A stretch of DNA of 64,000 nt from assembly GCF_000789255.1 (NCBI RefSeq), contig NZ_CP009552.1, positions 1,054,001-1,118,000 of the forward strand. Direction: 5' to 3'. The notes under the pieces are model-generated. The model worked only from the letters and a program-made list of their open reading frames with translations, was not told the DNA's origin and made no database searches. Origin of the DNA: Geoglobus acetivorans (GTDB taxonomy: Archaea; Halobacteriota; Archaeoglobi; Archaeoglobales; Archaeoglobaceae). Numbering within the stretch: the stretch's first letter is position 1; every line of letters starts with the position of its first letter. A program made the position numbers and the translations under genes. Positions 3,308 through 39,806 of this stretch are shown one piece after another.

Positions 3308-3312
3308 TTCCG

Positions 3313-5669: not shown

Positions 5670-5724
5670 ATGTTCTGGGATATGCCAATAAATTTTAAAA
5701 ATTTGCTTTTACGCTAACATATAT

Positions 5725-5749: not shown

Positions 5750-5842
5750 AGTATTTATGCGAGAAAAATTGGGCTAACAAAAGTATGTTTCGCCTGAGGG
5801 TCTTGAAGGGGCTACAAATGGGACTTTAAGGGAGGAGAGAAA

Positions 5843-6616
5843 ATGGGTGACGCTCTACGCATGGCTATTCTTGTAGGGATCAAAGAGAAACTCGGACACA
5901 TTGGTGAAGTGGCGTCTGAATTGAGTGCAAATGTTAAGAATGAAAGAAAAAGTTACAAAAGTGACTATCAAAACCAAATCTCGAATTTAGTCAGATTATA
6001 TGAAGATGCTCAAAAAGAATTAAAGCTAACAGGATTTGGTCAAATATCGGAAATTATGCCTTCCGTATATGTCCCATTATTTCCTAACAAGGAACAGCTG
6101 TTGAGTATGTTAACCGAAGTAACTGCCGGATGTGTTGCGGGAATCACAGCTATTAAAGAGCTACTAAACCGGCAAGCACTCCCAGAAGAGTTCGTCAACA
6201 AATTAAAAGGTTTCAGAAAAAGATTAGAAACAATTGAAGACATTGATCCACTAATCCACAAGAACCTCGACAAAGCCATTTTAGAAATGGAACATGGCCA
6301 TTATCTTGCTTCGGCCCTAATATCTGCGAGAGTTGTCGTCTGGATTCTCCAACAAATTCCCCCTGAAGAAAAAGATCTGGAGAACAAAACAAAGAAGAAA
6401 ATAGAGACTCTAATCAATATGGGGATAATTGACAAAAGCTCAAAAGATGAAATTAAAAAGCTCATTCAAGCGGCTGGATTGGCAAGAAACTTTGTCTCTC
6501 ACAGAATTTCAGTATTTCCTGAGCCAGAGGAGGCCATGATTTTGCTCGGAAATGCTGTTAAGCTTGCTAAGATCTATACAGAGTTTAAGAAAATGGGCGG
6601 ATTAAAGGAGGAATAA
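5843..6616 (+). CDS. HEPN-like domain protein
   Basis: 257 helical residues with a strong GGGAGGAG ribosome site before the ATG. The C-terminal half (about 136-245) has the two-helix pattern of HEPN domains, including the Rx4H signature RNFVSH (Arg215 to His220), which in many HEPN proteins forms the RNase active site. The N-terminal 130 residues are a separate helical region of unknown kind. HEPN proteins commonly act as toxins or defence RNases or as helper domains. No nucleotidyltransferase partner lies beside it. Neighbours are a putative nuclease (divergent) and a small membrane protein whose start codon is 3 nt downstream. Family assignment is by motif, not search. Confidence 0.6.
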   Translation: MGDALRMAILVGIKEKLGHIGEVASELSANVKNERKSYKSDYQNQISNLVRLYEDAQKELKLTGFGQISEIMPSVYVPLFPNKEQLLSMLTEVTAGCVAGITAIKELLNRQALPEEFVNKLKGFRKRLETIEDIDPLIHKNLDKAILEMEHGHYLASALISARVVVWILQQIPPEEKDLENKTKKKIETLINMGIIDKSSKDEIKKLIQAAGLARNFVSHRISVFPEPEEAMILLGNAVKLAKIYTEFKKMGGLKEE

Positions 6617-6619
6617 AAC

Positions 6620-7082
6620 ATGGGGTGGAAGCTGAGATATTACGACTCCTTCCACCGGACTGGAGAAAAAGGTTAAGGTGGAGATCGCTCAAAACAGGCT
6701 TGAGATCGAGTCCAAACACCTGAAAAAGACCGTTTTCATCCAGCACATCAACTCCATAGAGCTGAAAAGGGATCCAGCGTGGAGATATCTTATCGGCGGA
6801 ATCATCTTAACGGTTCCGGGGATTCTGCTAATGCTGAACGTCGATCAGATAATGGCCTCTTTGAAAATCACTGATCAATTTCTTAAGTTCCTGATTGTAA
6901 TGGGGAGCTTTTTCCTGATTCTTTTTGGAGTTATCACGATCGCCTACTGGTGGTATTTACGCAGGTTCATCCTGACGATTTACCTCTCCGGGGATGCTGT
7001 CCCGCTCTACGACAGAAAAGAGAAGCCTTTGAAGGAGATTTATACAAGTCTTCAATCTCTCAAAGAACAAACTTCTCATTAA
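6620..7082 (+). pseudogene. Small membrane protein with an apparent frameshift near its 5' end
   Basis: A well-placed ribosome site (GGAGGAA, 6607-6613) precedes ATG 6620, which opens an 18-codon frame (MGWKLRYYDSFHRTGEKG) stopping at 6674-6676. The rest of the protein lies in the next frame, where only a poorly preceded GTG at 6678 is available. Removing one A from the AAAAA run at 6666-6670 joins the two into a continuous protein of about 153 residues (TGEKVKVEIAQN across the junction). The body has two membrane spans (about 30-50 and 68-92 of the downstream frame, which spans 6678-7082) and a basic soluble region before them. Alternatives are a real decayed gene, a sequencing error or slippage expression. 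Confidence 0.6.
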
Positions 7083-7132
7083 TTGATTTGTAGCGAATAA
7101 AATAATAAAGACCAACACAAACATTCGATTAC

Positions 7133-7393
7133 ATGACTTGGACAATCGTAACAAAAGATGAATTTGAACGCCAGTTCAGGGATCTAACCAGAAAAGACAA
7201 ACCACTGGCTGGAAGGCTGGCCAAAGCCATTCTGAAGCTGGAAGATAACCCGCATCTGGGAAAACCTCTTTCCTACGATCTCTCGGGATTGTGGTCTCTG
7301 AGAGTGGGGAAATACCGGATTATTTACGAAATCAACGAAAACGAAAAGAAGGTTATTCTAAGAGCTGTTTCCCACAGAAAAAAGAGCTATTAA
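7133..7393 (+). CDS. RelE/ParE-superfamily toxin
   Basis: 86 residues with the compact RelE fold order: the N-terminal TKDEFERQFRDL helix, a second helix ending in LEDNPHLGKPL, then strands LWSLRVGKYRIIYEI and the C-terminal RAVSHRKKSY. Members are ribosome-dependent or free mRNA endonucleases, and the basic residues in the last strands are typical of the active surface. No antitoxin precedes it on the same strand. Instead its 3' end overlaps by 4 bp the convergent small gene at 7390-7602, which resembles a RelB-type antitoxin. Confidence 0.85.
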   Translation: MTWTIVTKDEFERQFRDLTRKDKPLAGRLAKAILKLEDNPHLGKPLSYDLSGLWSLRVGKYRIIYEINENEKKVILRAVSHRKKSY

Positions 7394-7602
7394 GCGTCAA
7401 TATCCAGCTCTTCCAGAAATTCCCTGAACTCCCTTTTCTCCGGCTGGGTTTCAGACCTTTTCAGAGACTCCATCAGCTCTTCGTCACTCATTATCTCCAA
7501 GGTCTCAATGAGTGAGTCCAGTCTGTCTCTGAGCTCCTTAAGATCCTCGAGAATTCTTTTACCGGCAGCGGTTTGCATACGAATCATTGTTGGATCTATC
7601 AT
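7390..7602 (-). CDS. Probable RelB-like antitoxin, convergent with RelE
   Basis: 70 residues. A helical N-terminal half (KELRDRLDSLIET) leads into LEIMSDEELMESLKRSE and ends in FREFLEELDI. The segment around residues 37-50 and the acidic end resemble archaeal and cyanobacterial antitoxins that partner RelE toxins, where the C-terminal helix wraps the toxin. The opposite orientation to the toxin, with overlapping stop codons, is unusual because toxin-antitoxin pairs are normally co-directional. The assignment depends on family resemblance judged by eye. It could instead be an unrelated small acidic protein. Confidence 0.5.
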   Translation of the reverse strand: MIDPTMIRMQTAAGKRILEDLKELRDRLDSLIETLEIMSDEELMESLKRSETQPEKREFREFLEELDIDA

Positions 7603-7624
7603 TTATAAAGCTATCTTCCCGATT

Positions 7625-7867
7625 TCAAAAGCTCATCCTCTCAGCAAACTCTTCAATAGCTCTTTTAACCTTTTCCAAGGGCAGCATATACATCAAAATC
7701 TCCCAGAACTCCATCACCAGATCCTCTCCCATCTCCACCCTGATCTGCTCCAGATCCAGCCTGTAGGTTCCGTTCACCTTGTTTATGTTGTTCCTCAGGG
7801 CGATCTTCCTCGCATCAACTGCCACGGCGTGATCCTTCCCGTTCCCGCGTATTATCGGCACAGTCAT
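7625..7867 (-). CDS. Small hypothetical protein
   Basis: An 80-residue ORF starting MTVPIIRGNGKDHAVAV, with mixed beta then alpha character and no recognised motif. It lies 22 nt upstream of, and in the same direction as, the putative antitoxin at 7390-7602, so the two may be co-transcribed. It is preceded by an AT-rich stretch. Real coding is likely because the product has a balanced composition and the ORF fits the operon spacing, but no family is recognised. Confidence 0.55.
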   Translation of the reverse strand: MTVPIIRGNGKDHAVAVDARKIALRNNINKVNGTYRLDLEQIRVEMGEDLVMEFWEILMYMLPLEKVKRAIEEFAERMSF

Positions 7868-8038
7868 GCAAGAATTTGCAACAACTTGTAACTGTTAAAT
7901 TTCTCTCCATCAAAGAATATCTCAGAACACATTATGACAAAATGCCCCGGTGAAAGTAAGAGAGTGCCGGTGTTCTTGCTGAAAATATGCCATAAGCACA
8001 AAAGGAATGGGACATCGGTATGTGTGAGGGAAAGATTA

Positions 8039-8794
8039 TTAAAAACTCTTCATCGCCTCCCTCAACCTCTGCTGAGCCTCATCGCTGAACCAAAGCTCGA
8101 CAAAGACATCAACATCTCTCTCCAGGCGTTTTATGATGTCTTCCCTCACCCTTTCTGTCCTGTTTGCCTTAACAGCCGCAAATGCTCTGCCAGGGAGTTC
8201 TCCAATTTTCTTCACCCTCTCAACGGACTTCTGAAGCAGCTCTTCCGGAGCAAAGACGCCATCCACCACCCCCATCTCAAGAACCTTCTCTGGAGGATAG
8301 AAATCTCCCCCGTACACCATTTCAACCGTAACCCTGTCTCCAGCAATTTGCTGGAGGATTCTCTGTGGAAGGTAAGGCACAGACACGCCCAGCTTGACCT
8401 CGTTCAGGCCAAACAGCTTTTTTCCCTCGCTCATATATCTGAAATCGCAGCACAGAGCGAGAATGCACCCTCCAGCTATCGCATGTCCGTTTATTGCGGC
8501 AGCAGTAGGCTTTGGCAGAGTATAGATATCCAGGCAGAGGAGGTTGAAATCCATTATGAATTCCCTGAATTCCGTTTTGTCATAATCGATCAGCTCCGGC
8601 ACATCAAGCCCTATTGAGAAAAATCTGTCGTTTGAGCTTGTGAGAACTGCAGACGTTATCCCTCCATCCTCCCTAACCTGCTCAATAACCTCTGAAAGAT
8701 CACCAACAAACTCTGGATTTATTGGATTCTTTTTTCCTCTGTTAAGCCTGACAACCGCAACACCATCCATGTCCTGGAGATCAACAGTATTCAT
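8039..8794 (-). CDS. Enoyl-CoA hydratase/isomerase family protein (crotonase)
   Basis: 251 residues from ATG 8794, which matches the usual crotonase length; the in-frame extension up to 8875 crosses the promoter region. It shows the N-terminal strand VAVVRLNRGKKNPIN, the oxyanion-hole segment INGHAIAGGCILALCCDFRY (about 106-125), and FGLNEVKLGV with the conserved Glu. The family hydrates or isomerises enoyl-CoA thioesters, mostly in beta-oxidation, and this fits the acyl-CoA dehydrogenase and CoA-transferase elsewhere in the window. The exact substrate cannot be read. It is divergent from the FGGY kinase. A TATA-like element lies near 8812-8820 on its strand. Confidence 0.9.
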   Translation of the reverse strand: MNTVDLQDMDGVAVVRLNRGKKNPINPEFVGDLSEVIEQVREDGGITSAVLTSSNDRFFSIGLDVPELIDYDKTEFREFIMDFNLLCLDIYTLPKPTAAAINGHAIAGGCILALCCDFRYMSEGKKLFGLNEVKLGVSVPYLPQRILQQIAGDRVTVEMVYGGDFYPPEKVLEMGVVDGVFAPEELLQKSVERVKKIGELPGRAFAAVKANRTERVREDIIKRLERDVDVFVELWFSDEAQQRLREAMKSF

Positions 8795-8900
8795 GATCCA
8801 GAGTGAAATCCTGCATATATCAAATTTTTGAAAATTACATTCGGATTCGCGCACATTTGGCATGCCAGATACCATCAGTGAACATGCATTATCCTGTCCG

Positions 8901-8918
8901 CAACCCCCGGCGGGGTTG
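8901..8918. promoter_or_regulatory. Perfect inverted repeat between the crotonase and kinase genes
   Basis: CAACCCC (8901-8907), a CGGC loop, then GGGGTTG (8912-8918): a 7-bp perfect palindrome in an otherwise AT-rich divergent intergenic region. It lies just upstream of a TATA-like TTATAAATA near 8932-8940 serving the kinase start at 8964. Likely an operator or a short terminator hairpin; not proven. Confidence 0.4.
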
Positions 8919-8963
8919 TTTCATAAAGTCAATTATAAATAATTTCAAATACAATACATCTGC

Positions 8964-10475
8964 ATGCCCGATTACTTCGCTCTTGTGGATGCCGGCACAA
9001 CATCGATCAAGGCAGGAATCGTTGAGAGCCAGAGGTTCAAAGTAGTCAGAGAAAAATCTGAGAAAACAGAGGTCGTTCATCCAAAAGAAGGTTATGCTGA
9101 AAAAGACCCGGAATTCCTGTGGGAACAGGTAAAATCTCTTTTAGCCGAAATTATAGAGGGTTATGAAGTCAGGGCAATCGCATTCACGGCCCACATGGCT
9201 GGTTTCGTCCCTGTGGACAGGAACGGCGACCCACTGTTCAACATGGTTATATGGCTGGATGAGAGAGGCAAGGGCTATCCCGAAGACCTTTTCAGAGACT
9301 TCCCATCCATATCGGGATACAGTCCGTTGAGATTGCTCAGGTTCCTGAGGATTACAGGCGGAGCTCCAAGCAAAACAGGCAAGGACGTTCTGCCAAAGAT
9401 CCTCTGGATGAGAGACAACGAACCGGAGGTGTTCTCCAGAACCTGGAAATTCCTCGACGTGAAGGGGTACCTGATTTACAGATGCACGGGAAAAGCCGTG
9501 ACGAGCCATGACGAGGCACACCTCACATGGCTCGCCGACACGAGAAGAAACAGGGCAGAATGGCATGAGGGCCTCATGAGAGACTACGGTCTGAAACCAG
9601 ACCTTTTTCCGGAGATAATGAACAGCACAGATGTGGCCGGATTTCTTGATGAAAGCGTTTCAAAGGAACTGGGCATAAACAGGGTTCCGGTGGTCGTTGG
9701 CGCGGGAGACATGTGCACAACGGCAATAGGTTCGGGAGCTGTTGAGAACAACAGAATCCATATTTACTTGGGAACAAGCGACTGGATTGGAGCACATGTG
9801 GACAAAAGAAAGGCCGACGTGAAGCATTACATAGGCACAATACTGAGCGGGATTCCGGAAAAGTACTTGCTTGTTGCTGAGCAGGAAATTGCAGGAGGGG
9901 CAATTGACTGGGTGATGAACATTCTGAATCTGAAGGATTACGAGAAAGTCGATGAAATCGTTAAAATGACCGAAACTGACCTCATATTCACACCATGGTT
10001 TTTCGGAGAGCGGGCCCCAATTGACGACCACTACATCAGGGCGAGCATCTTCAACCTGAGTCTGAAAACCGGAAAAGATGAGATGCTCAGGGCATTGTTC
10101 GAGGGTGTGGCAATGAACATAGCATGGGCGTACCATTTCGTGGAAAAGATGACCGGAACCAATGAGTCCGTAAGAATTACGGGCGGAGGTGCAAGATTTG
10201 ACTCGCTTTGTTCAATAATCGCCTCTGCAATAAACAGAAAAGTCGTGAGAACGGCAAAACCGGAACATGCCGGGTTGAGGGGCTTAGCCACAATAGTAAA
10301 TACTGCAGTAAACGGAGAAAGCTGCCAGGATGCGGTTAAAAGGTTCGAACATGAAAGAGAGTTTCATCCAGACGCACAGCAGCACAAAAATCTCCAGAAC
10401 AAGCTTGAAATCCTGAGAGAATACTATAGAAAGACAGCCGGAGTTTTCAAAAAGCTAAACAGAGGTGTTCTTTAA
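8964..10475 (+). CDS. FGGY-family carbohydrate kinase
   Basis: A 503-residue two-domain sugar kinase of the glycerol kinase/xylulokinase family. It has the N-terminal ATPase strand FALVDAGTTSIKAG (phosphate-1), a VVGAGDMCTTAIGSGAV block near the domain interface, and the C-terminal ITGGGARFDSLCSIIA adenosine-binding motif followed by a helix. It phosphorylates a sugar or polyol with ATP in the cytosol. The substrate is not readable, but xylulokinase-like proteins are the closest in layout. The TATA element is about 25-30 nt from the ATG, which suggests a leaderless transcript. The next feature downstream is a box C/D sRNA. Confidence 0.88.
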   Translation: MPDYFALVDAGTTSIKAGIVESQRFKVVREKSEKTEVVHPKEGYAEKDPEFLWEQVKSLLAEIIEGYEVRAIAFTAHMAGFVPVDRNGDPLFNMVIWLDERGKGYPEDLFRDFPSISGYSPLRLLRFLRITGGAPSKTGKDVLPKILWMRDNEPEVFSRTWKFLDVKGYLIYRCTGKAVTSHDEAHLTWLADTRRNRAEWHEGLMRDYGLKPDLFPEIMNSTDVAGFLDESVSKELGINRVPVVVGAGDMCTTAIGSGAVENNRIHIYLGTSDWIGAHVDKRKADVKHYIGTILSGIPEKYLLVAEQEIAGGAIDWVMNILNLKDYEKVDEIVKMTETDLIFTPWFFGERAPIDDHYIRASIFNLSLKTGKDEMLRALFEGVAMNIAWAYHFVEKMTGTNESVRITGGGARFDSLCSIIASAINRKVVRTAKPEHAGLRGLATIVNTAVNGESCQDAVKRFEHEREFHPDAQQHKNLQNKLEILREYYRKTAGVFKKLNRGVL

Positions 10476-10529
10476 CCCCACCCCCGGTTGCAGAAAAACT
10501 TATTACACTTCCTGCCAAAAAAATTCAGG

Positions 10530-10586
10530 GATGATGAATTTGGCAGGACCTGAGCGAAAGCGATGATGAAGGCTGTACTTTCTGAT
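10530..10586 (+). ncRNA. Box C/D small guide RNA
   Basis: The full consensus order fits in about 57 nt: box C ATGATGA (10531-10537), a 12-nt guide, D' CTGA (10550-10553), an 8-9 nt linker GCGAAAGCG, box C' ATGATGA (10563-10569), a 12-nt guide, D CTGA (10582-10585). Both guides have the 12-nt spacing typical of archaeal dual-guide sRNAs. The N+5 rule would place the methylated nucleotides opposite A10545 (D' guide ATTTGGCAGGAC) and A10577 (D guide AGGCTGTACTTT). The targets are presumably rRNA or tRNA not in this window. Box D abuts the stop codon of the convergent radical SAM gene. Confidence 0.88.
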
Positions 10587-12508
10587 CAGTAGTAATACCA
10601 GATGGTCCTGTAATCCTCCAGACTCTCACCCATACTTTCCAGGAAATCAAGATACTCTTTTATTGGAACGTCCGAATACGTGTATGGCTTGGTTTCACTT
10701 ATGCCCTTCTCCCATGGGTGCATGAGGTACACCCTGCTTCCATCTGGCTTTACAGCTATGAGTTCTCTGTCCTGCCATGCCCGGAGGTGATTTTTGCCCA
10801 TTCTCGGGACGTTGAAAACGGGTTCATCTCCTCTGAAAACGCCTGGCAGAAGTCTTGCCTCTTCCTTCCCTTCCTGCACGATTCTCGCAATTGGAATCAG
10901 GTAGTCTTTCTGCTCAATTTTACCTTTGGGGAAGAAGGTGTAATACGGCTCAACGCCCGCCTTTTTCAGCGCAATTCTGAGGACAACGTTCTCGAACCTT
11001 CTGCTCACCATTCTGTGGTACACGTGCTGGTTGTAAATGATGATGCCATACTTTCTGAGCCTGTAGGCAGCCTCACTGACTTCGGGCGTTACCTCGTATG
11101 CAGTTTCAAAGTGGGTCGAAACAGACAGGTTCCTCTTACCGGGCTCTATGTAGCTCCCGAGCATCTCCGCAAGGTTTTCAGTTATCCTCATCGGGACCGT
11201 AACGATCACTCTCGACCCTATCCTGATGTTCGCCACATGATCGAATTCCGCAACCCGTCCAATGATCCTCTCAAGGGTTTTATCACTGAGAGCCAGCGGG
11301 TCCCCTCCGGTGATCAGGACATCAATCATGGAATCGTGCTCACCAAACCACTCTATTGCCCTCTCGATTTTCTCCCACCCCGGAAAAGCGTTTGCCATGA
11401 ATGGCTCGGTGACCTCCCAGTTTCTCTGGCAGTACACACATATCTGGGGACAGGTTTCATAGGGCTTGACAATCGCAATCATCGCATATCTTCTCGTTAC
11501 AAGGTCAACCGGTGAGGTGTCGTGCTCACCCATGAAGTCGAAGTAAATTTCCCTGTCATCCTTGTGACCGAGCATGTTCATGACATACCATTCAGGGGGC
11601 ATCACCTGTCTTCTGACGTGCATGTCATGTCTGTAAGGCTCCTCAAAATCCCAGAGGTGGAGATAGTAGGGCGTTATACCCCACGGGATGTGATTCTCAA
11701 TCGCAAGCTCCACGAGCTTCAGATTGTCCTCTGGCACCTTCACGATCCCAAGCTCGTTTAGTTCCTTCAGAATCTGAAGGCCCTTTTCTCTTTTGAGGAC
11801 ATGCGAGAACTGCCATTTGTAGCTGTTCCACCTGTCTTCATCTATTCCCCAGAATTCAATCAGCTTTTCTTTCTGTTTCTTTCTCTTTTCAATAATCGCA
11901 TCATCGAGACCGGTTGGATACCTGTCCACGTAACCCTTTATAATCCTCCAGGCCTCATCAAGATGCTTTGACCGTATCTCGGCTGCTTTTCTGCCCTTTA
12001 TCCGGTCAAAATCGACAAATTCCACACCCCTTTCAGAGAGCATCTGACCGAGCCAGCCCTTCGAATAATCTGCCTTACCCGCCATTGCCCTGAAAAGGTG
12101 TCTGAACTCCTCCACGAAGCCCTCTGTAATGACCGATAAAACGTTTTCATCTCCCTTCGTTGCTCTCCAGAGATACTCCAGAGTTGAGAATCCTGCAACA
12201 TTCTCCATGTATTCAGACGTCAGGTTCATAAAAACGCCTATCGCCTCTTCGCACAGCCACCTTTCCACCGGTTTTGAGGCTATTTCGCCATTCTTGCATT
12301 TAATCAGTAGCTCTCCAGAAAATTTCTGTGCAAGATTTCTGGCTTCATCAATACTCTCCGCCTTCAGCAATAACTCCTTCAGCTCCGGAAGAGGTTCAAA
12401 TATTTCGAGGAAGTTAGAGTGAGATACACCCTGTTCCAGTCCCCAGGGAGATTTTTCAAGATTTATAAGCTCATTATCGGGCATTTTTACATTGTCCGCA
12501 TACTCCAT
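10586..12508 (-). CDS. KamA-family radical SAM protein (lysine 2,3-aminomutase-like), long form
   Basis: 640 residues, about 200 longer than classical lysine 2,3-aminomutase. The radical SAM cluster motif CPQICVYC (Cys353, Cys357, Cys360) sits in a barrel preceded by RYAMIAIVKP and followed by a GGDP motif (VLITGGDPLALS) that binds SAM in the family. The first 300 residues are a helical extension with no motif I recognise. Classical members interconvert alpha- and beta-amino acids with PLP, and archaea use one to make the osmolyte N-epsilon-acetyl-beta-lysine. This long form lacks an adjacent acetyltransferase, so its substrate is unknown. It is convergent with the C/D sRNA. Confidence 0.85.
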   Translation of the reverse strand: MEYADNVKMPDNELINLEKSPWGLEQGVSHSNFLEIFEPLPELKELLLKAESIDEARNLAQKFSGELLIKCKNGEIASKPVERWLCEEAIGVFMNLTSEYMENVAGFSTLEYLWRATKGDENVLSVITEGFVEEFRHLFRAMAGKADYSKGWLGQMLSERGVEFVDFDRIKGRKAAEIRSKHLDEAWRIIKGYVDRYPTGLDDAIIEKRKKQKEKLIEFWGIDEDRWNSYKWQFSHVLKREKGLQILKELNELGIVKVPEDNLKLVELAIENHIPWGITPYYLHLWDFEEPYRHDMHVRRQVMPPEWYVMNMLGHKDDREIYFDFMGEHDTSPVDLVTRRYAMIAIVKPYETCPQICVYCQRNWEVTEPFMANAFPGWEKIERAIEWFGEHDSMIDVLITGGDPLALSDKTLERIIGRVAEFDHVANIRIGSRVIVTVPMRITENLAEMLGSYIEPGKRNLSVSTHFETAYEVTPEVSEAAYRLRKYGIIIYNQHVYHRMVSRRFENVVLRIALKKAGVEPYYTFFPKGKIEQKDYLIPIARIVQEGKEEARLLPGVFRGDEPVFNVPRMGKNHLRAWQDRELIAVKPDGSRVYLMHPWEKGISETKPYTYSDVPIKEYLDFLESMGESLEDYRTIWYYY

Positions 12509-12677
12509 ATTCTTATTTTTTCTTAGGGATACAAGTTTTTTACGCCCACTTGCTAATACAAGACAAGGACAATATGTATCTCCGCCAGAACATTAGTATG
12601 ACAGTTCGTATCCAGAAACATGAGTTAGAACCCACAACTGATTTAACCCGCCACGCCATGATATCCAAGGTGGCTGA

Positions 12678-14624
12678 ATGGAGGAGTATTACGACTATCT
12701 CGAACACCTGAAAAACCTGATTGAATCCGAAAGAGAAGAGGAAAGAAGAAAGGCAATCGAGGAAATAAAATCCCTCTCCGCAGCACAGAGGGAAAAGTCA
12801 GGCAAGACGATTACAGGACTGAAGGGCAAGGTTGTCTCCAAAAATCCTAAAAAGACAGTCATACGATTCGGAAGACGGGTTGAAATCAAAACTGACATAG
12901 GTCCGGGAGATGTTGTTCTTGTAAGCAACGGAGACCCGCTTAAAAAGGCCTCCGAAGGAGTGGTTATTGAGAGGGGTGGCAGATATGTTGATGTGGAATT
13001 CCTGAAAATACCGGACATCAGGCTCGACAGTGTCAGGGTTGACCTGTTTTATGATGACACAACCTTCAACAGGATGGAGGAGAACCTCGACAGACTGTTT
13101 TACGGCGGAATGAAGGCCATAAAGCTGATTTTTGGAGATGATGACGTCAGCGAGGCAGAAACGGTTGATTTCCGACCATTTGATAATAAACTGAATCCCT
13201 CTCAGAAAGCAGCAATTTCAAAGGCTCTGGGCAGTGAGGACTTCTTCATCATCCACGGTCCTTTCGGAACAGGGAAAACACGAACGCTTGCAGAGTACAT
13301 CCTGCAGGAAGTTGAGAGGGGAAACAGGGTCCTCGCCACCGCTGAAAGCAACACGGCGGTGGACAATCTGGTTGAGAGGCTGGCCGGTAACGCGAAAATC
13401 GTGAGGGTGGGACATCCGTCAAGGATTGGTGAAAAGCTGAGAAAGGTCTCCTTAGAGGAGAAAAAGAAAGAACATGAATGGTACAGAGAACTGGAGGATA
13501 TCTGGAAAGAGATTGAAGAACTGATGAAAAGAAGAGAAATGGAAATACAGCCAACACCGAGATTCAGAAGGGGAATGAGCGACAGAGAAATCATGGAACT
13601 CGCCCAGAAGCGAGTGAGGGCATACAGGGGTGTTTCAGGAGCTGCAATAAGGTCCATGGCAAGGTGGCTTGAGATTAACGAAAGGCTGAAAGAGCTTTTC
13701 AGCGAAGCAGAGAAAATCGAAAAACGAATCGAAAAAGACATTTTTGAAAAAATGCAGGTTGTGCTTACCACAAATTCGACCGCATTTACAGTTGATGCCG
13801 GATTCGACGTTGCTGTAATTGACGAGGCGACGCAGTCGATAATACCCAGCACCCTAATCCCAATCAATAAAGCCAGAAAGTTCATTCTTGCAGGAGATCA
13901 CAAACAGCTTCCGCCTACAATCCTCAATTTAGAGGCAAAAGAACTTGAGAGGACGCTTTTTGAGATTTTGATTGAAAGGTATCCCTTCAAATCAGAAATG
14001 CTTGATACACAGTACAGGGCCAGAAGAGAGATTGCCGACTTCCCATCAATGACGTTCTACGGTGGAAGGGTAAAAACCCACGAAAATGCAGAAAAAATAT
14101 CGATTTCAGACCTCAACCCATCAGCCAGGAGTGCAGCCGAAAGATTTCTCGCCAGCTATCCGCTCATCTTTATCGATACGGAAAAGTCAGGAGGGGAGAG
14201 AACCAAGAAAGGGAGCAAATCATACCATAACCCTGTTGAAGCGAAGATTGTGGAAAGGGTTGTCAGAAAACTTGAAAGAATGGGAATAGACAGAGATTGC
14301 ATAGGTGTTATCTCGCCATACGACGATCAGGTCAGGCTGATAAGAGATCTGGTGGACTGTGAGGTCAAGAGCGTTGACGGCTATCAGGGGAGAGAAAAGG
14401 AGGTCATCATAATTTCCTTCGTTAGAAGCAATGAAAAGGGTGACCTCGGATTTCTGCGAGATTACAGAAGGCTGAACGTTGCACTTACAAGAGCGAAAAG
14501 GCTTCTTATAGCTGTGGGTAGTGCTGAGACCCTGAGCAAAGATGTTGTTTACAGGAGGTTTATCGGATACGTAAAGGAGAGGGGTGCAGTAATCGGTGCC
14601 TCCACTTTTTTAAGCCTTGATTAA
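12678..14624 (+). CDS. SF1 DNA/RNA helicase (IGHMBP2/Upf1/Dna2-like)
   Basis: 648 residues. An N-terminal coiled coil and an OB-like insertion (about 45-110) precede the two RecA domains. Motif I is GPFGTGKT (194-201), motif II VIDEATQS, motif III LAGDHKQLPPT, motif IV/V region IGVISPYDDQV and VKSVDGYQGREKEVII, and motif VI LNVALTRAKRLL. These are diagnostic of superfamily 1B helicases of the Upf1-like group. It probably unwinds nucleic acid 5' to 3' in replication, repair or RNA turnover. It ends 4 nt into the convergent transporter gene. Confidence 0.94.
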   Translation: MEEYYDYLEHLKNLIESEREEERRKAIEEIKSLSAAQREKSGKTITGLKGKVVSKNPKKTVIRFGRRVEIKTDIGPGDVVLVSNGDPLKKASEGVVIERGGRYVDVEFLKIPDIRLDSVRVDLFYDDTTFNRMEENLDRLFYGGMKAIKLIFGDDDVSEAETVDFRPFDNKLNPSQKAAISKALGSEDFFIIHGPFGTGKTRTLAEYILQEVERGNRVLATAESNTAVDNLVERLAGNAKIVRVGHPSRIGEKLRKVSLEEKKKEHEWYRELEDIWKEIEELMKRREMEIQPTPRFRRGMSDREIMELAQKRVRAYRGVSGAAIRSMARWLEINERLKELFSEAEKIEKRIEKDIFEKMQVVLTTNSTAFTVDAGFDVAVIDEATQSIIPSTLIPINKARKFILAGDHKQLPPTILNLEAKELERTLFEILIERYPFKSEMLDTQYRARREIADFPSMTFYGGRVKTHENAEKISISDLNPSARSAAERFLASYPLIFIDTEKSGGERTKKGSKSYHNPVEAKIVERVVRKLERMGIDRDCIGVISPYDDQVRLIRDLVDCEVKSVDGYQGREKEVIIISFVRSNEKGDLGFLRDYRRLNVALTRAKRLLIAVGSAETLSKDVVYRRFIGYVKERGAVIGASTFLSLD

Positions 14625-15448
14625 TCTGTAACCTCATCCCTCAGCGATACGAGCAGGACTGCTACGAACAGGAGGGCAACTCCTGCATACTGGAGCATGT
14701 CGAGACGCTCACTGAGAAATACGGCCGCAAACATGTAGGAAAACACACCCTCCATTGACAGAATTATTCCGGCATCAACCGACTTTGTATGTGCCTGCAT
14801 GTAATTCTGAAGAATCTTTGCAATGAACGTCGCCAGCAAACCCGTAAGCAGCAGGGCAAAAAGAACGTAGCTGTTCAGCGCAAATCTGTCGGTTGTGAAA
14901 ACCGCCGGCAGGGCTGAAAACATCCCCACAGCCACAACCTGCCAGCCCGCAAGACTCAGAGGGTTCAGATTTTTCGCATAGTGAGATATCATTGCGATTT
15001 CAAGGGCGAAAGCTATTGCACAGAGGAGAATGAGCAGATCACCGTAGTTAAAACCAGAATATCCGGAAAGAAGATAAATGCCCGCAAAAGCAAGGATAAC
15101 AGCCACAACCTCAATCGGTGAGACTCGCTCTCTATAGAGCAGAAAAGCTAGGATGGGCGTTATCACGATGTACACAGAGGTTATGAACCCCGCATTCGTT
15201 GCTGTTGTGTACTGAAGTCCAGCGGTCTGAAACGCATAGCCGAGAAAGGTTGCAGAGCCGATGGCAATTCCAGCCCGGATTTCATTCATCCTCAAAAACG
15301 GAAGGAACAGCAGCCCCGTGAAAATGAATCTTACCGCATTGAAGGCAAACGGAGACATGAATTCAAGTGCTACCTTGACAACGGGAAAAGTCGCACCCCA
15401 TATCAACGCCACGGCCAGCAGACCGAGGTCAGCGTAAAGTCGTTTCAT
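14621..15448 (-). CDS. EamA-family (DMT) transporter
   Basis: About 275 residues from ATG 15448 (MKRLYADLGLL), with ten hydrophobic helices in two EamA repeats. The first opens with the typical LIWGATFPVVKVAL and the second with a matching SMEGVFSYMFAAV. The frame extends upstream to 15487, but the internal Met gives the usual N-terminus. Members export amino acids, metabolites or nucleotide sugars by proton exchange, and specificity cannot be read. The gene is convergent with the helicase and is followed by no co-directional partner, so it is probably monocistronic. Confidence 0.9.
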   Translation of the reverse strand: MKRLYADLGLLAVALIWGATFPVVKVALEFMSPFAFNAVRFIFTGLLFLPFLRMNEIRAGIAIGSATFLGYAFQTAGLQYTTATNAGFITSVYIVITPILAFLLYRERVSPIEVVAVILAFAGIYLLSGYSGFNYGDLLILLCAIAFALEIAMISHYAKNLNPLSLAGWQVVAVGMFSALPAVFTTDRFALNSYVLFALLLTGLLATFIAKILQNYMQAHTKSVDAGIILSMEGVFSYMFAAVFLSERLDMLQYAGVALLFVAVLLVSLRDEVTD

Positions 15449-15509
15449 CGGACATGAGAAAAAAGGTGGGTAAAAAAATTTTGTCAATTTTTATCAAAAT
15501 AGCAGTATG

Positions 15510-16160
15510 TCACCCCTGTGGTGGAGTCATCATCATTGTTACCGAACACACATTTCCATCGGGCTGGAAAAGCGTTAGATCAGCATCAACAAATTTTCCT
15601 TCATAGTTCTCCATAACCTGTCCCTGATAGCTCACAGTCGCTGTAAATGCATCTCCCACAGGTTCATCCTTAAGCTCCTCGGCCTCTCCAGGACTGACAG
15701 TCTGAGTGGTTTTTACCATAACCCAGTCGCAGTTGGGAGACACAGGCATATTCTGCATCCCTTTCATGTACATGGTCATTGTAAGGGTATTATCCTCGTA
15801 CTTGTTCCGCATTATGACAACCCCGCCCTCAGAATGCTCCATTCGAATCATCTGCTCGTTGTTATCTGCATCGTAGTAATACCAGAACTCCACCGTCCTT
15901 GTTTCTCCATTCTCCACCACCGTTGCTTTACCATAATACATCTTTTTAGCCACAAACAGGTCGTAAAGCGTGTTAATCCCACCAGCAGATGCCCCGCTCC
16001 CACCAGAACTCCCGCCCTGTGCTGGTTCAGGGGTTCTCTCAGCTTCAGGCGTTGAGACAGGGGTCGGTGTTGCAGCAGGTTTGGCCCCCTCATTCTGGCC
16101 AGAACAGCCAGCCATCAGAAGTACCAGAGCTGCAAAAACAACAATCAGTATTTTCCTCAT
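15510..16160 (-). CDS. Membrane-anchored lipoprotein of unknown function
   Basis: 216 residues with a lipoprotein signal: a short basic start, a hydrophobic core (LIVVFAALVLL) and the lipobox LMAGC at about 15-19. A Pro/Thr/Glu then Gly/Ser-rich linker (about 25-60) is followed by a beta-rich domain with many Met and Tyr residues (FWYYYDAD, MTMYMKGMQNM). It should be tethered outside the cell membrane, with the linker spacing a sensor or binding domain. The layout resembles archaeal lipoproteins related to LolA/LppX-like folds, but I do not claim the family. It is divergent from the Lhr helicase. Confidence 0.85.
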   Translation of the reverse strand: MRKILIVVFAALVLLMAGCSGQNEGAKPAATPTPVSTPEAERTPEPAQGGSSGGSGASAGGINTLYDLFVAKKMYYGKATVVENGETRTVEFWYYYDADNNEQMIRMEHSEGGVVIMRNKYEDNTLTMTMYMKGMQNMPVSPNCDWVMVKTTQTVSPGEAEELKDEPVGDAFTATVSYQGQVMENYEGKFVDADLTLFQPDGNVCSVTMMMTPPQG

Positions 16161-16274
16161 GCTCTAACCTCCGTCAATTATCATGATTTTAGCTTAAGAA
16201 TTATATATGGTTTTTCACAGACCGGAGTGCTGCATTGAGATACCACAACATTTTAAGCACCCTCACAGAACCGG

Positions 16275-18854
16275 ATGCTGGTGATAGTTCAGGGAAAGGC
16301 ATACGACGATGAGGAGATAAAATCCAGGCTCAATCCCATTCTGAGGGAATGGTTCGAAGAAAAATACGGCGAATTCACCCCACCTCAGAAGTACTCAATA
16401 ATGGAGGCTTTTAACGGCAATAACGTGCTCATCTCATCTCCCACGGGCAGTGGGAAGACTCTTGCGGCCTTCATGACAGCTCTGAGCAGACTTCTCGACA
16501 GGGCAGTGGAAGGGACGCTCGAAGACAGAGTGTACGTCGTGTATGTGTCTCCCCTGAAAGCCCTTAACAACGACATAAGAAAAAATCTCGAAGAACCGCT
16601 GAACGAAATCTACGAGCTGGCTGGGAGAAAAAAGATCGGGATTCAGAAGATAAGGGTGGCTGTGAGAACCGGAGACACGGACTCAAGCGAGAAACAGAGG
16701 CAGCTCAGGAAACCTCCACACATCCTGATTACAACCCCTGAGAGTCTCGCAATTGCCCTTTGCTCACCCAAATTCTCAAAAGTCCTGAAAAGGGTGGAGT
16801 TTCTCATAATAGATGAACTTCACGCTCTCGCAGAGAACAAACGTGGCACCCATCTTTCACTCTCGGTGGAGAGGCTCCAGGAAATTCAGGAAGGAAAGAT
16901 GGTAAGGATCGGTCTCTCAGCAACCATTCATCCACTTGAAGGGGTTGCAAGGTTCCTTGCCGGATACGAAAACGGCAGGGAAAGAGACTGTGTGATTGCA
17001 GATGTGACATTCGAAAAGAAAATAGACATCTCCGTGCTTTCACCCGTAGAAAATCTCTTCAACGCCACTGCTGAAGAGATAAGCGAGAAGCTTTACCAGA
17101 CGCTGGCAGAAATGATAAGAGGGGCAAAGACCACGCTGATATTCACAAACACGAGAAGTGCAACGGAGAGAGTAGTGTTTCATCTCAAAAAAATAATGGG
17201 AGACGAGTTTCCGGTTGCCGCCCACCATTCATCCCTCTCAAGGGACGTGAGGCTCGAAGTTGAGGAAAAGCTGAAGAGTGGAGAACTCAAGGTCGTGGTG
17301 AGCTCAACAAGCCTGGAACTGGGCATAGACATTGGCTACGTTGACCTGGTCGTTCTCATAGGTTCTCCAAAAAGCATAAACAGAGCACTGCAGAGAATTG
17401 GCAGAGCGGGGCATAGGCTTCACGAGACGAGCGTGGGCAGAATTGTTGTTCTTGATCATGATGACCTCGTCGAGTGTTCGGTTCTCGCTAAAGAAGCCCT
17501 TGAGAGACGACTTGACAGGATCCACATTCCGGAAAAGCCTCTCGATGTGCTGTGTCAGCACGTTGTGGGAATGGCAATCGAAAGAAAATGGGGTGTCGAT
17601 GATGCTCTCAGGGTCGTGAAAAGAGCCTACCCGTACAGAAACCTCACAAAAGAAGAATTCGTTGCTGTGCTGAAATATCTGGCAGGGAAATACTCAGAGC
17701 TTGAGGAGAAGAACGTTTACGGGAAGATATGGTTTGACGAAGAGACAATGGAATTCGGTAAGAGAGGCAGAATGGTGAGACCCATCTACTACCTCAATAC
17801 CGGTACAATTCCGGATGAGGTTGCAGTGTCGGTCGTGACAAAGGAAGGACACCATGTGGGAAAGGTCGAAGAGGAGTTCGCAGAGAGGCTCGTTAAGGGG
17901 GATATCTTCGTTCTTGCTGGAAGGACGTTCAGATTTTTGAGATCGAGGGGTATGCGCATAATAGTCGAAGAAGTTAAGGACGAGAAACCCACCGTCCCGA
18001 GCTGGTTTTCCGAGCAGTTACCTCTGAGCTACGATCTCGCACTGAGAATACAGGAGTTCAGAAGGGTGATGGACGAAAACCTTGAGAGTGCCCATAAGAT
18101 ACTGAAAAGCTTTCCAGTAGACGGAAATGCTGCTGAGTCCATCATCAGGTACTTCGACGAGCAGAAAAGGTTCAGCATCATACCACACAGCAAGAGGCTT
18201 GTGGTGGAGAAGCTTGAGGAGGACAGGAACTACTATTTCTTCCATACTCTCGTGGGCAGAAGAGCCAACAGTGCCATCGCAAGGACATTCGCTTACAGAG
18301 TTGGAAGGGCAAAGAAGTGCAATGTCCAGTTCACCCTGAACGATAATGGCTTTGTCCTCATCCTCCCCCGGAGTAAAAGATTGAAGGACAGTGAAATAAT
18401 CGACCTCTTCGAGCTGAAAGGCTTCGAAGAGGACCTTAATGAAGCGCTCATGAAGACCGAAATTCTCAGGAGAAGGTTCAGACATGTTGCTGTGAGAAGC
18501 CTTATGATTTTGAGAAACTACCTCGGGAGAGAGAAAAGCGTGTGGAGGCAGCAGGTAAACGCAGACACTCTGCTCAGATTACTTCTGAAGCACTTTGGGA
18601 AGGAGTTCCCGGTAATAAAGGAGACATTCCGGGAGATCATGGAAGATGCGATGGACATCATAAATGCCAGAGATTACCTCTCAAGAATCGGGAAGGAAAT
18701 TGATGTGGTTGTTACACGCATCCCATATCCAAGTCCGTTTGGCCTGAATCTCTATGTAATGGGAGAGGAAGATGTCGTTCTCATGGAGGACAGAAGAAAG
18801 GTGTTGAAGGAACTGCACGAAAAAATCCTTGCATACCTCTCAGCGAACTCATGA
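16275..18854 (+). CDS. Lhr-like SF2 DEAD/H helicase
   Basis: 859 residues. The Q-motif region TPPQKYSI, motif I SPTGSGKT (54-61), motif Ib ITTPESL, motif II IDELHAL, motif III GLSATIH, and motif V/VI STSLELGIDIG ... QRIGRAGHR are all present. They are followed by a winged-helix and a large C-terminal domain ending in a PSPFGLNLYVMG block, the arrangement of Lhr-core helicases. Archaeal Lhr proteins translocate 3' to 5' on single-stranded DNA and act in repair or recombination. The 3' end overlaps convergent hypD by 6 bp. Confidence 0.94.
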   Translation: MLVIVQGKAYDDEEIKSRLNPILREWFEEKYGEFTPPQKYSIMEAFNGNNVLISSPTGSGKTLAAFMTALSRLLDRAVEGTLEDRVYVVYVSPLKALNNDIRKNLEEPLNEIYELAGRKKIGIQKIRVAVRTGDTDSSEKQRQLRKPPHILITTPESLAIALCSPKFSKVLKRVEFLIIDELHALAENKRGTHLSLSVERLQEIQEGKMVRIGLSATIHPLEGVARFLAGYENGRERDCVIADVTFEKKIDISVLSPVENLFNATAEEISEKLYQTLAEMIRGAKTTLIFTNTRSATERVVFHLKKIMGDEFPVAAHHSSLSRDVRLEVEEKLKSGELKVVVSSTSLELGIDIGYVDLVVLIGSPKSINRALQRIGRAGHRLHETSVGRIVVLDHDDLVECSVLAKEALERRLDRIHIPEKPLDVLCQHVVGMAIERKWGVDDALRVVKRAYPYRNLTKEEFVAVLKYLAGKYSELEEKNVYGKIWFDEETMEFGKRGRMVRPIYYLNTGTIPDEVAVSVVTKEGHHVGKVEEEFAERLVKGDIFVLAGRTFRFLRSRGMRIIVEEVKDEKPTVPSWFSEQLPLSYDLALRIQEFRRVMDENLESAHKILKSFPVDGNAAESIIRYFDEQKRFSIIPHSKRLVVEKLEEDRNYYFFHTLVGRRANSAIARTFAYRVGRAKKCNVQFTLNDNGFVLILPRSKRLKDSEIIDLFELKGFEEDLNEALMKTEILRRRFRHVAVRSLMILRNYLGREKSVWRQQVNADTLLRLLLKHFGKEFPVIKETFREIMEDAMDIINARDYLSRIGKEIDVVVTRIPYPSPFGLNLYVMGEEDVVLMEDRRKVLKELHEKILAYLSANS

Positions 18855-38329: not shown

Positions 38330-38520
38330 ATTCCGCAAATGGCTCATTTTTAAAAGGTTCTGATTGGTGTCGGGGTGTCGATTCTGTTTTACAGATGATG
38401 AAGCGTCAGCGTAACCATAACTGAAACGGCAACTCTTGCTGAAGAAAGGCGGAGCATCCTTCGTTCAGGTTCAGGTGGTATATAAAAGCTGTGAGAGAGA
38501 TCAGAAAAGTTCTTGAGTGA

Positions 38521-38784
38521 TTATCTGTATCCTCTACCCCGCCTGAATGCCTCTACAACATAGACAGTCTTGCCATCAACAAAATACTCAAATCTGATGT
38601 CCCCAACTCTCAATCTGTACATAGTTCTTTTCTCTCCTTTCAGTTTCTTAATTGATACTCCTGATCTCGGAGTGAATGGATCTTCTCCAAGCTTTTTTAA
38701 GCTATCAACACACCTTTTTCTTTCAACTTCATTCAACTTATCCAAAAACTTCACAACATCAGGGTGAAGAGAGACCAAGAACAT
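38521..38784 (-). CDS. RelE-family toxin
   Basis: 87 residues: helix HPDVVKFLDKLNEVERKRCVDSLKKL, then GVSIKKLKGEKRTMYRLRVGDIRFEYF and VVEAFRRGRGYR, the strand order and basic C-terminus of RelE toxins, which cleave mRNA, usually on the ribosome. It is immediately downstream of a small acidic gene in the usual antitoxin-first order, with no gap. Unlike the toxin at 7133, this pair is canonical. Confidence 0.88.
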   Translation of the reverse strand: MFLVSLHPDVVKFLDKLNEVERKRCVDSLKKLGEDPFTPRSGVSIKKLKGEKRTMYRLRVGDIRFEYFVDGKTVYVVEAFRRGRGYR

Positions 38785-38994
38785 TCAAAGTCCTCTTGAG
38801 CTTGTGTATTCATCCAAGGAAACAAACTTATCCCTGTCCTTAATTACTTTCTCCCATTTTTCTTCGATGTAGCTCTGAAGTTCTTCGTATGATTCAATCA
38901 GCCTTTCAATCACTTCTTCAATTGGCTCATCATTCTTCCTTAGCTTTTCGAGTTTTCTGAAAATTCCTTCCCTGAGGGTTATTGAAGTCATCAA
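38785..38994 (-). CDS. Antitoxin of the RelE pair
   Basis: 69 residues: an N-terminal ribbon-helix-helix-like segment (MTSITLREGIFRKLEKLRKNDEP) followed by a long acidic helix (EVIERLIESYEELQSYIEEKWEKV). The ribbon would bind operator DNA and the helix would wrap the toxin. It abuts the toxin gene. The start could be either of two adjacent ATG codons. Confidence 0.8.
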   Translation of the reverse strand: MMTSITLREGIFRKLEKLRKNDEPIEEVIERLIESYEELQSYIEEKWEKVIKDRDKFVSLDEYTSSRGL

Positions 38995-39283
38995 AATAAG
39001 TTACCCTCAATGGTATTTAATTTCTTTCTCAGGGCCTCTTTCCATCCATTAACTCCCGGTTATCACATTAGAACATGCTGAGGTTTTGGTGCAAAAATCA
39101 GGTTCTGGTGATTCCTTGAGAGTCGAAGGAATTTTAGAATAGGTCCAGCTTCCAAGAAGTCGAAAGATTGTTAGACGAACTGACCGGGTATCCCCGGTAA
39201 CGCCATATAGCTGGAGTACATACATTTAGAGGCCGGGACTCCGGGAGGAGATATCTCTCAACCCAGATTGCGTGGTTAATTAA

Positions 39284-39532
39284 TGGGAAACCGGGTATTC
39301 CAAAAAAAAGCACCTTCTCGAAGGCCTGAAAGAAGCATCACGGGCAGCTAAAAAAGAAGGCCTGCACTCTGGAGGAATTGAGTACATTATCGTCAGCAAC
39401 TGCCTTGATCGCATACCCGCCAGCTTTGCAGAGAAGTGGATAGCTGCAAGGAAGGGCAAGAACCTCCTGTTAAGCTTCGCACTCATTCAGGCTGAGGCCA
39501 TGAAGGGCGCAAGCAAAAGGAGAAGGAGATAA
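39284..39532 (+). pseudogene. Start-less ORF remnant in the accessory patch
   Basis: After in-frame stops at 39227 and 39281, a frame stays open for 82 codons and encodes a protein-like sequence (LLEGLKEASRAAKKEGL, GGIEYIIVSNCLDRIPASF, AEKWIAARKGKNLLLSFAL) ending in a basic tail at a TAA at 39530. The only in-frame ATG is near its end. Codon use and composition look coding, so it is most likely the 3' part of a decayed gene, probably from the same integrated element as the integrase stub at 39574. The 290 bp upstream (38995-39283) hold no other gene I can support. Confidence 0.4.
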
Positions 39533-39573
39533 GCTTATTTTTATCCCTACGTATAAATAAGCAGGTGTTGGCC

Positions 39574-39795
39574 ATGCCAAAGGTCGGAAGCAATAAAACG
39601 AAATTAACACTCTGGGTGGATAAAAATATTCTGGCTGAAGCAATGGCTACGGGGCTTAATCTTTCCGCCTTTTTGGAATTGCGGATTAGAGAATACCTCG
39701 CCATGGTAAAAAGCTATTTTAATGGCGAATTTACGCCGCCGGCAGGATTCGAACCTGCGACCACCGGATTAACAGTCCGGCGCTCTACCAGCTAA
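39574..39795 (+). CDS. SSV-type integrase N-terminal fragment, int(N), overlapping tRNA-Asn
   Basis: 73 residues from ATG 39574, with AGGTG 6 nt upstream and a TATA-like GTATAAATA at 39551-39559. The N-terminus has a ribbon-helix-helix look (LTLWVDKNILAEAMATGLNL ... FLELRIREYLA). The last 20 residues (PPAGFEPATTGLTVRRSTS) are the reverse reading of the 3' half of tRNA-Asn. That is the structure left when an SSV-type integrase gene is split by integration into a tRNA gene: the short N-terminal part stays fused over the tRNA 3' half. No int(C) part is seen in this window. Confidence 0.6.
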   Translation: MPKVGSNKTKLTLWVDKNILAEAMATGLNLSAFLELRIREYLAMVKSYFNGEFTPPAGFEPATTGLTVRRSTS

Positions 39796-39806
39796 GCTAC
39801 GGCGGC
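39734..39806 (-). tRNA. tRNA-Asn (GTT)
   Basis: Read on the minus strand: acceptor GCCGCCG pairs with CGGCGGC, the D-arm is GCTTAGCTGGTAGAGC, anticodon stem CCGGA/TCCGG encloses loop CTGTTAA with anticodon GTT, and the T-arm has GGTTCGAATCC. G73 is followed by no encoded CCA. 73 nt, no intron. Its 3' half doubles as the likely attachment site of an integrated element (see 39574-39795). Confidence 0.97.

What the first reader, a model, noticed from the sequence alone, without database searches (positions are those of the whole stretch)
39574..39806. Integrase N-terminal stub reading into tRNA-Asn: scar of an SSV-type element
Seen: a promoter-bearing 73-codon gene begins with a ribbon-helix-helix-like domain and finishes by translating the 3' half of tRNA-Asn in reverse. 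Known: SSV-type integrases are split on integration into int(N), which overlaps the tRNA 3' half, and int(C) at the far end. Inference: a virus or plasmid once integrated here on the left side of tRNA-Asn, and most of it has been lost. This would mean an SSV-type element in an Archaeoglobales host.
Basis: partly seen in the sequence, partly recalled or inferred. Interest (0 to 1): 0.65.

Follow-up and report, generated by a model that had tools for sequence, protein, structure and literature searches.

The report
Broken integrase scar beside tRNA-Asn
A mobile DNA element of a known archaeal type once inserted next to an asparagine tRNA gene, cutting its own integrase gene in two, and most of it has since been lost, leaving a short, recognisable scar.

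Summary
ORF 39574-39795 (73 codons) has an RHH-like start and reads antisense through tRNA-Asn (39734-39806).

Among 28 homologous stubs found elsewhere, 26 run into the antisense 3' end of a tRNA of many kinds; two are cut by contig ends. One further place is an unsplit integrase with the same N-terminus, an att stretch and a PF16795 tyrosine-recombinase domain related to SSV1 and pT26-2 integrases. The window's own genome carries a complete split element at tRNA-Asp (42-bp perfect att pair, 8.2 kb).

The window locus is a remnant of about 1.3 kb: the last 10-18 codons of int(C) (38466-38520), a toxin-antitoxin pair, an element-associated repeat, and int(N). attL and the recombinase domain are gone. 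No empty site was found; the closest relative has a different insert there.

Such suicidal integrases are already published for Archaeoglobales, so this is a new, decayed example of a known kind. Less expected is an ACGT-centred site upstream of many int(N) genes (17 of 29, 3.2 expected), hinting that the N-terminal domain regulates its own promoter; many stubs decay, so the stub itself is probably not maintained.

The parts
39574..39795 (+). int(N): 73-codon N-terminal stub of a suicidal (SSV-type) integrase; RHH-like domain (about residues 8-49), then translated antisense tRNA-Asn
   Evidence: profile match to N-termini of pT26-2 and pGE2 integrases
39534..39545 (+). TATA-like box of int(N) (inferred)
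   Evidence: sequence; similar A/T-box before relatives' int(N)
39548..39553 (+). TACGTA, the window's (degenerate) form of an ACGT-centred site common upstream of int(N) (possible operator, inferred)
39734..39806 (-). intact tRNA-Asn(GTT), the integration target; att core inferred as about 39734-39777 from the 42-46 bp att repeats of relatives
   Evidence: att lengths
38466..38520 (+). residual 3' end of int(C): last 10-18 codons, ending ...AVREIRKVLE-stop, with small gaps upstream of 38484
   Evidence: contiguous DNA match to int(C) end plus TA pair in L089/L090
38521..38784 (-). RelE/ParE-like toxin carried by the element
   Evidence: phrog_1213 RelE-like 2.7e-10; weak Pfam Gp49/ParE
38785..38994 (-). 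partner antitoxin-like gene (TTG start; DUF7557, VapB-like)
39039..39226 (+). element-associated non-coding repeat; its conserved 37-bp motif lies at 39060-39096
39284..39532 (+). 82-codon open frame without known relatives, presumed leftover of element cargo
   Evidence: no convincing match
38366..38465 (.). zone holding the left junction; homology with the closest relative upstream of the CoA-transferase ends at 38365; attL not detectable

Best explanation
The ORF is int(N), the 5' piece of an integrase gene whose attachment site lies inside its own coding sequence. A circular plasmid-like element, with attP identical to the 3' part of tRNA-Asn, recombined into the tRNA gene. The tRNA was rebuilt intact and the integrase gene was split: int(N) with its promoter stayed at the right end, reading into the tRNA, and int(C) went to the left end. 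Later deletions removed the left att copy, nearly all of int(C) and the cargo. What remains is the int(C) 3' tip, a toxin-antitoxin pair, an element repeat and the int(N) stub. Shown here: the stub's homology to an unsplit integrase, its recurrence at tRNAs, the int(C) tip with the same neighbours as in two relatives, and a complete split copy of the same kind elsewhere in this genome. Inferred: the order and timing of the deletions, that int(N) may still be transcribed, and that the stub has no present function.
For: 16 of 17 other places found run into an antisense tRNA and the 17th is an unsplit integrase; a second scan of another collection adds 9 of 11 new loci, the other two being cut by contig ends. 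The unsplit protein has PF16795 archaeal phage integrase (9.7e-45) and matches SSV1 integrase structures. Of 13 stub loci examined for partners, 5 have a perfect att repeat of 42-46 bp and 5 an int(C), 4 having both, one of them in this genome at tRNA-Asp. The window's int(C) tip lies on the expected side and strand and is contiguous with the TA pair, as in L089/L090. DNA homology with the closest relative resumes exactly at the tRNA 3' end, 39734. The N-terminus matches pT26-2 and pGE2 integrases. An own-genome tRNA-Lys remnant has the same layout (L064).
Against: No attL copy is detectable. The int(C) tip is short: local scores 23 and 25 against shuffle maxima of 18 and 19, and it did not stand out against the own tRNA-Asp int(C) (12); a direct protein search of int(C) against the region gave no convincing match. 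The closest relative is not an empty site: it holds a different 2.3-kb insert. No element with this exact N-terminus was found free.
Confidence: 0.94

Rival explanations
1. A stand-alone RHH regulator or antitoxin gene (CcdA-like) that ends by chance inside a tRNA gene.
For: Pfam's best match is the antitoxin CcdA, and a TA pair lies next door on the other strand.
Against: 26 of 28 other stubs also run into tRNAs of many isotypes, and the homologous full-length protein is an integrase. Chance cannot give this.
Confidence: 0.02
2. A maintained gene: int(N) is kept after integration as a small RHH repressor that binds the ACGT-centred site at int promoters and silences incoming related elements.
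For: ACGT within 45 bp upstream in 17 of 29 stubs (3.2 expected by shuffling; 5 of 74 control ORFs); the window stub has an open frame and a TATA-like box.
Against: Several stubs are visibly broken: L026 and L028, L135, and L064, L093, L099r, L123r, so there is no sign of general maintenance. The palindrome in the window is degenerate. Many of the 29 upstream regions are related, so they are not independent.
Confidence: 0.08
3. A genuine mini-element (integrase, TA and the 37-bp motif only, about 1.4 kb) rather than a deletion remnant.
For: Similar small layouts at own tRNA-Lys (att to tRNA 1368 bp) and at tRNA-Glu in L124r (about 1.5 kb).
Against: In L064 int(C) has lost most of its middle and int(N) its start; in L124r int(C) is shortened: signs of independent deletion. 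Full elements of 8.2-9.8 kb exist.
Confidence: 0.04
4. The stub comes from the second recombinase clade that shares the RHH and att module (P0005/P0006 type) rather than from the PF16795 clade.
For: That clade carries a homologous N-terminus and also has the 37-bp motif after its 3' end.
Against: The int(C) tip next to the TA pair matches the PF16795-type int(C) of L089/L090, of which the fuller one (L123r) is 64% identical to the own tRNA-Asp int(C).
Confidence: 0.07

Closest known systems
IntpT26-2 family of suicidal integrases (pT26-2, pGE2; Thermococcales, reported also in Archaeoglobales)
   Same: Unsplit relative P0002 is 44% identical to the pT26-2 integrase over residues 73-326 and 34.6% to pGE2 over nearly its whole length, N-terminus included; the stub profile matches both N-termini; att inside the gene, int(N) reading into the tRNA 3' end.
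   Different: Only int(N) and a tip of int(C) remain here. The relatives' elements are 8-10 kb with a Prim-Pol or DUF3987 protein, whereas pT26-2 and pGE2 are 21.6 and 24.0 kb.
SSV1 and other fuselloviruses (prototype SSV-type integrase)
   Same: Split-gene logic and PF16795 catalytic domain; 26% identity of P0002 to SSV1 integrase, SSV1 integrase structures hit at E about 1.6e-6.
   Different: Far more divergent; the alignment with SSV1 starts at residue 53, so the RHH-like N-terminus is not matched. No virus gene was recognised among the 8 proteins of two related full elements scanned with Pfam.
Archaeoglobus profundus pleomorphic provirus 1 (ApPV1) integrase
   Same: 53% identity to P0002 over residues 47-330; Archaeoglobales host.
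   Different: Carried by a 14.7-kb virus with a VP4-like fusion protein; no such gene remains in the window.
ArcVen-P3 provirus, Archaeoglobus veneficus (PMC4158269)
   Same: Published SSV-like split integrase in an Archaeoglobales genome, with an originally unannotated int(N) (passages read).
   Different: Complete provirus at tRNA-Ser.

Membership tests
SSV-type (suicidal integrase) integrated element | Integrase 5' part reads in frame into the tRNA 3' end at one border (int(N)) | tested here: met
SSV-type (suicidal integrase) integrated element | int(C) at the other border, same orientation | tested here: inconclusive
   Only the last 10-18 codons remain, on the right side and strand
SSV-type (suicidal integrase) integrated element | Direct att repeat at the far border | tested here: not met
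   No copy of the tRNA-Asn 3' end in window or genome; present in 5 of 13 stub loci examined. So the locus is filed as a remnant, not as an element
SSV-type (suicidal integrase) integrated element | Tyrosine-recombinase catalytic domain | tested here: not met
   Lost in the window; present in homologues (PF16795)
IntpT26-2 subfamily | N-terminus and catalytic part closer to pT26-2 than to SSV1 or pTN3 | tested here: met
   Through the homologue P0002; N-terminus; no tree was built
Ribbon-helix-helix (CcdA/CopG-like) domain | Curated profile match and beta-alpha-alpha fold | tested here: inconclusive
   CcdA below cut-off; predicted beta-alpha-alpha; Foldseek and PDB profile search without match
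Active mobile element | Excision or free circular form | not testable with these tools
   No reads; the window copy lacks attL and recombinase

The most novel reading that the evidence does not exclude
The N-terminal RHH domain of these integrases is also the repressor of the integrase promoter, acting on an ACGT-centred palindrome next to the start codon. Integration then leaves behind a free-standing repressor (int(N)) that can silence the integrase of incoming relatives, a built-in superinfection control of suicidal integrases.
Probability: 0.1. Interest if true: 0.65.

Novelty: new member of a known kind. Interest (0 to 1): 0.3.

Why it matters
It adds a well-bounded scar to the record of suicidal-integrase elements in Archaeoglobaceae and shows how they decay: the two ends of the split integrase outlive the cargo. 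The set of stubs gathered here (many tRNA isotypes, one RHH and att module joined to two recombinase clades) gives material for the open question of how suicidal integrases change target and persist. If the promoter-proximal ACGT site is bound by the integrase's own N-terminus, it would offer a simple control circuit for an otherwise self-destroying gene.

Tried and rejected
Chance ORF or stand-alone antitoxin: rejected by recurrence at tRNAs. Empty attB in the closest relative G001: first considered because the 211 bp next to tRNA-Asn are shared by G001 and G005, then rejected because the same segment also lies next to tRNA-Thr (L147) and tRNA-Asp (L148), so it is probably the end of another tRNA-linked insert. 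Mini-element: disfavoured (see rivals). Degenerate attL at 38366-38500: best local score 5, shuffle median 7. Whole-stub searches in phages, plasmids and IMG/VR gave mainly tRNA-derived tails; P0002 and the stub profile found nothing in IMG/VR; the 37-bp motif was not in IMG/VR as an exact pattern. The 82-codon frame 39284-39532 has no convincing match. Selection on orphan stubs could not be tested: no orthologous stub at the same tRNA in sister genomes was found. The palindrome test by best ungapped 16-mer was modest (sum 105, shuffle mean 92, maximum 102), and perfect palindromes of 6 or more were 22 of 29 against 17.8 expected; only the ACGT count was strong. The Thermococcales plasmid pGE2 shows no such ACGT site in the 33 bases upstream of its annotated start.

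Full report
What is there. The ORF at 39574-39795 encodes 73 residues. tRNA-Asn(GTT) lies at 39734-39806 on the minus strand and is intact. The last 20 residues are antisense tRNA: the frame crosses 59 of its 73 bases. The first 50 residues resemble a ribbon-helix-helix domain: Pfam CcdA at E 8e-4, just below its cut-off; predicted strand-helix-helix from the single sequence, mean pLDDT 77.5. Foldseek and a profile search of PDB sequences gave no relative, so the fold assignment is moderate.

It is not chance. A search of 40 genomes (own and relatives) with the 54-residue N-terminus found 18 places in 11 genomes, 17 besides the window. In 16 of these 17 ARAGORN finds a tRNA antisense at the end of the frame: Met, Arg, Ala, Leu, Ser, Thr, Lys, Pro, Ile. 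The 17th, L019, is an open frame of 353 codons: a homologous N-terminus, an att-like stretch, and a long C-terminal part. The whole-stub search of the own genome added a stub at tRNA-Asp (L002). An independent scan of GTDB contigs with the stub profile gave 17 loci; 15 run into a tRNA and two end at the contig edge. In all, 26 of 28 stubs besides the window end in a tRNA, 2 are cut, and one further place is the unsplit integrase.

What the unsplit protein is. P0002 (330 aa of L019) matches PF16795 'archaeal phage integrase' at 9.7e-45, the SSV1 integrase catalytic domain in the PDB at about 1.6e-6 (that these entries are SSV1's is my recall, the record says 'Probable integrase') and phrog_5127 integrase. 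Among plasmids its best relatives are pGE2 (34.6% over nearly the whole length) and pT26-2 (44% over residues 73-326); among viruses ApPV1 of Archaeoglobus profundus (53%) and, far behind, SSV1 (26%). The stub profile aligns with the N-termini of pT26-2 (hhalign probability 77%, E 2e-5) and pGE2 (87%, E 4e-6). The stub is therefore the int(N) of an integrase of the pT26-2 kind. The subfamily statement rests on pairwise scores; no tree was built.

Complete examples. Of 13 stub loci for which upstream sequence was fetched (up to 20 kb; in one case 1.6 kb), 5 have a perfect direct repeat of the tRNA 3' part of 42-46 bp (G017-Lys, G001-Arg, G016-Lys, own tRNA-Asp, G013-Lys) and 5 have an int(C) by tblastn (G017-Lys, G016-Ala, G016-Lys, own tRNA-Asp, G013-Lys); 7, the window among them, have neither. 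The own-genome tRNA-Asp element is 8.2 kb, from the att copy at the start of int(C) to the tRNA. In G017 two copies of 8,724 bp lie head to tail, 100% identical over the 8,715 bp aligned, with the unsplit integrase at their junction. In a metagenome assembly this can be a tandem integration or a free circle joined to the integrated copy; either way attP inside an open integrase gene exists.

What is left in the window. Left of the stub, 38484-39049 matches G005:C172 at 90% and 38490-39096 matches G004:C49 at 88%. In both relatives this block follows directly on the 3' end of an int(C) gene. The window has the same stop codon and the last codons, AVREIRKVLE-stop; a gapped alignment extends to 38466 (score 23 and 25; highest of 500 shuffles 18 and 19). 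Against the own tRNA-Asp int(C) the score is only 12, within shuffles, and tblastn of int(C) proteins against the region shows nothing convincing, so the tip is recognised through its near relatives and its neighbour, the TA pair. G005:C172 itself is a decayed element: truncated int(C), TA pair, two other genes, the 37-bp motif, then a frame-broken int(N) at tRNA-Gln. G004:C49 has shortened int(C), TA pair, motif and tRNA-Glu with a degraded att pair (39 bp at 87%). The window has the same order: int(C) tip, TA pair (38521-38994), motif (39060-39096), int(N), tRNA-Asn. The own genome has another such scar at tRNA-Lys (L064: att pair 41 of 42 bp, int(C) pieces, motif, int(N) without its start). 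The TA pair also occurs without an int(C) tip in G006 (L091), so the pair by itself is not diagnostic.

Borders. In the closest relative found, G001 (thermosome 99.6%, CoA-transferase subunit 92.5% identical), DNA homology ends at 38365 upstream of the CoA-transferase gene and resumes at 39734, exactly the tRNA 3' end. The right border is thus precise. The left junction lies between 38366 and 38465. G001 is not an empty site: it holds a different 2.3 kb there with HicAB-like genes (named by eye, not by a search) and a membrane protein gene. The 211 bp next to the tRNA recur next to tRNA-Asn in G005, tRNA-Thr in G003 and tRNA-Asp in G004, so they probably belong to another tRNA-linked insert. 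No clean empty site was found, and the age of the window's insertion relative to the split from G001 is open.

Mechanism. Established for this class (review PMC8371274; sections 18, 26, 30 and 31 read, other passages): the integrase recombines attP inside its own gene with a tRNA gene, the tRNA is restored, and the gene is cut into int(N) and int(C); excision then needs help from another element. Here the first step is shown by homology, the loss of attL, of most of int(C) and of the cargo by the sequence; the order of deletions is inferred.

What is known already. The same review lists the pT26-2 suicidal integrase for Thermococcales and Archaeoglobales, citing Badel et al. 2020, a paper I could not open. 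PMC4158269 (passages) describes a split SSV-like integrase with an unannotated int(N) in Archaeoglobus veneficus. PMC10919331 (passages) reports a pleomorphic provirus in Geoglobus acetivorans SBH6. That the window is from that strain is my recall of the genome size, not a tool result. The finding is a new, decayed member of a known kind. Searches on this point.

A possible regulatory twist. Within 45 bp before the expected start of int(N), ACGT occurs in 17 of 29 stubs against 3.2 expected from shuffles, and in 5 of 74 ORFs of 150 or more codons in the window as control. In several it is the centre of an 8-12 bp perfect palindrome next to the TATA-like box. RHH proteins bind short sites as dimers (recalled knowledge), and the review says of SSV1 that the repressor F55 controls the integrase operon; another paper's passage calls F55-like proteins CopG-like RHH. 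The N-terminus may therefore control its own promoter. Against a maintained role after integration: at least seven stubs are broken (L026, L028, L135, L064, L093, L099r, L123r), the window's site is degenerate, the upstream regions are partly related, and the overall palindrome excess is modest. The word 'ribbon' does not occur in the review's main text.

Judgement. Observation confirmed, interpretation supported, novelty low. The most useful by-products are the stub set, the sharing of one RHH and att module by two recombinase clades, and the ACGT lead.

Noticed in passing
L034 (own genome C1:943500-962500), int(C) 8789-9661, int(N) from about 16865, tRNA-Asp 17024-17100: Complete split-integrase element of 8.2 kb at tRNA-Asp in the window's own genome, with a 42-bp perfect att pair; carries a 904-aa DUF3987 protein, CopG-like and MarR-like genes.
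   Followed up: yes
L064 5549-6990 (own genome, tRNA-Lys): A second scar of the same kind in the own genome: att pair 41 of 42 bp, int(C) pieces, 37-bp motif, int(N) lacking its start.
   Followed up: partly
window 39060-39096; L031 near 7720, L064 6585, L126 6969(-), L127 5878(-), others: A 37-bp motif with a small hairpin-like core (TTATCACCTTAGAACATGCTAAGGTTTTGGTGCAAAA) recurs in 6 of 25 genomes searched, mostly just after the 3' end of int(C) or between int(C) and a tRNA; function unknown, possibly an origin or terminator.
   Followed up: partly
L127 5925-7112 (-), own genome; L031 6616-7674 (G001): A similar RHH-like N-terminus and att stretch are joined to a second, divergent recombinase-like C-terminal part without Pfam match (phrog_1 integrase 5e-9 for P0006 only); in G001 this gene is split by a 42-bp att pair at tRNA-Arg.
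   Followed up: partly
L030 (G017:C8) 86-17533: Two identical 8.7-kb copies of an element head to tail with an unsplit integrase at the junction: tandem integration or an assembled free circle.
   Followed up: partly
upstream of 17 of 29 int(N) stubs, e.g. L027, L129, L136: ACGT-centred site, often palindromic, next to the TATA-like box of int(N).
   Followed up: partly
L103 about 3147-3357, L107 1561-1771, L147 1502-1710, L148 342-551: A 211-bp segment with the first 44 codons of a membrane-protein gene lies directly 3' of tRNA-Asn, tRNA-Thr and tRNA-Asp in four genomes of the window's genus; looks like the end of another tRNA-linked insert.
   Followed up: partly
L030, L031, L033, L034, L037: A group of 8.2-9.8 kb plasmid-like elements in Archaeoglobaceae; shared among several of them are a large rep-like protein (Prim-Pol or DUF3987 in the two scanned), a zinc-ribbon-like protein of about 140 aa, CopG-like and wHTH genes.
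   Followed up: partly
L142, L143, L144: Stub-like N-termini also in three Thermoplasmatota MAG contigs; one runs into tRNA-Gly, two are cut by the contig end.
   Followed up: no
window 39284-39532: 82-codon basic open frame without any recognised relative, between the element repeat and int(N).
   Followed up: partly
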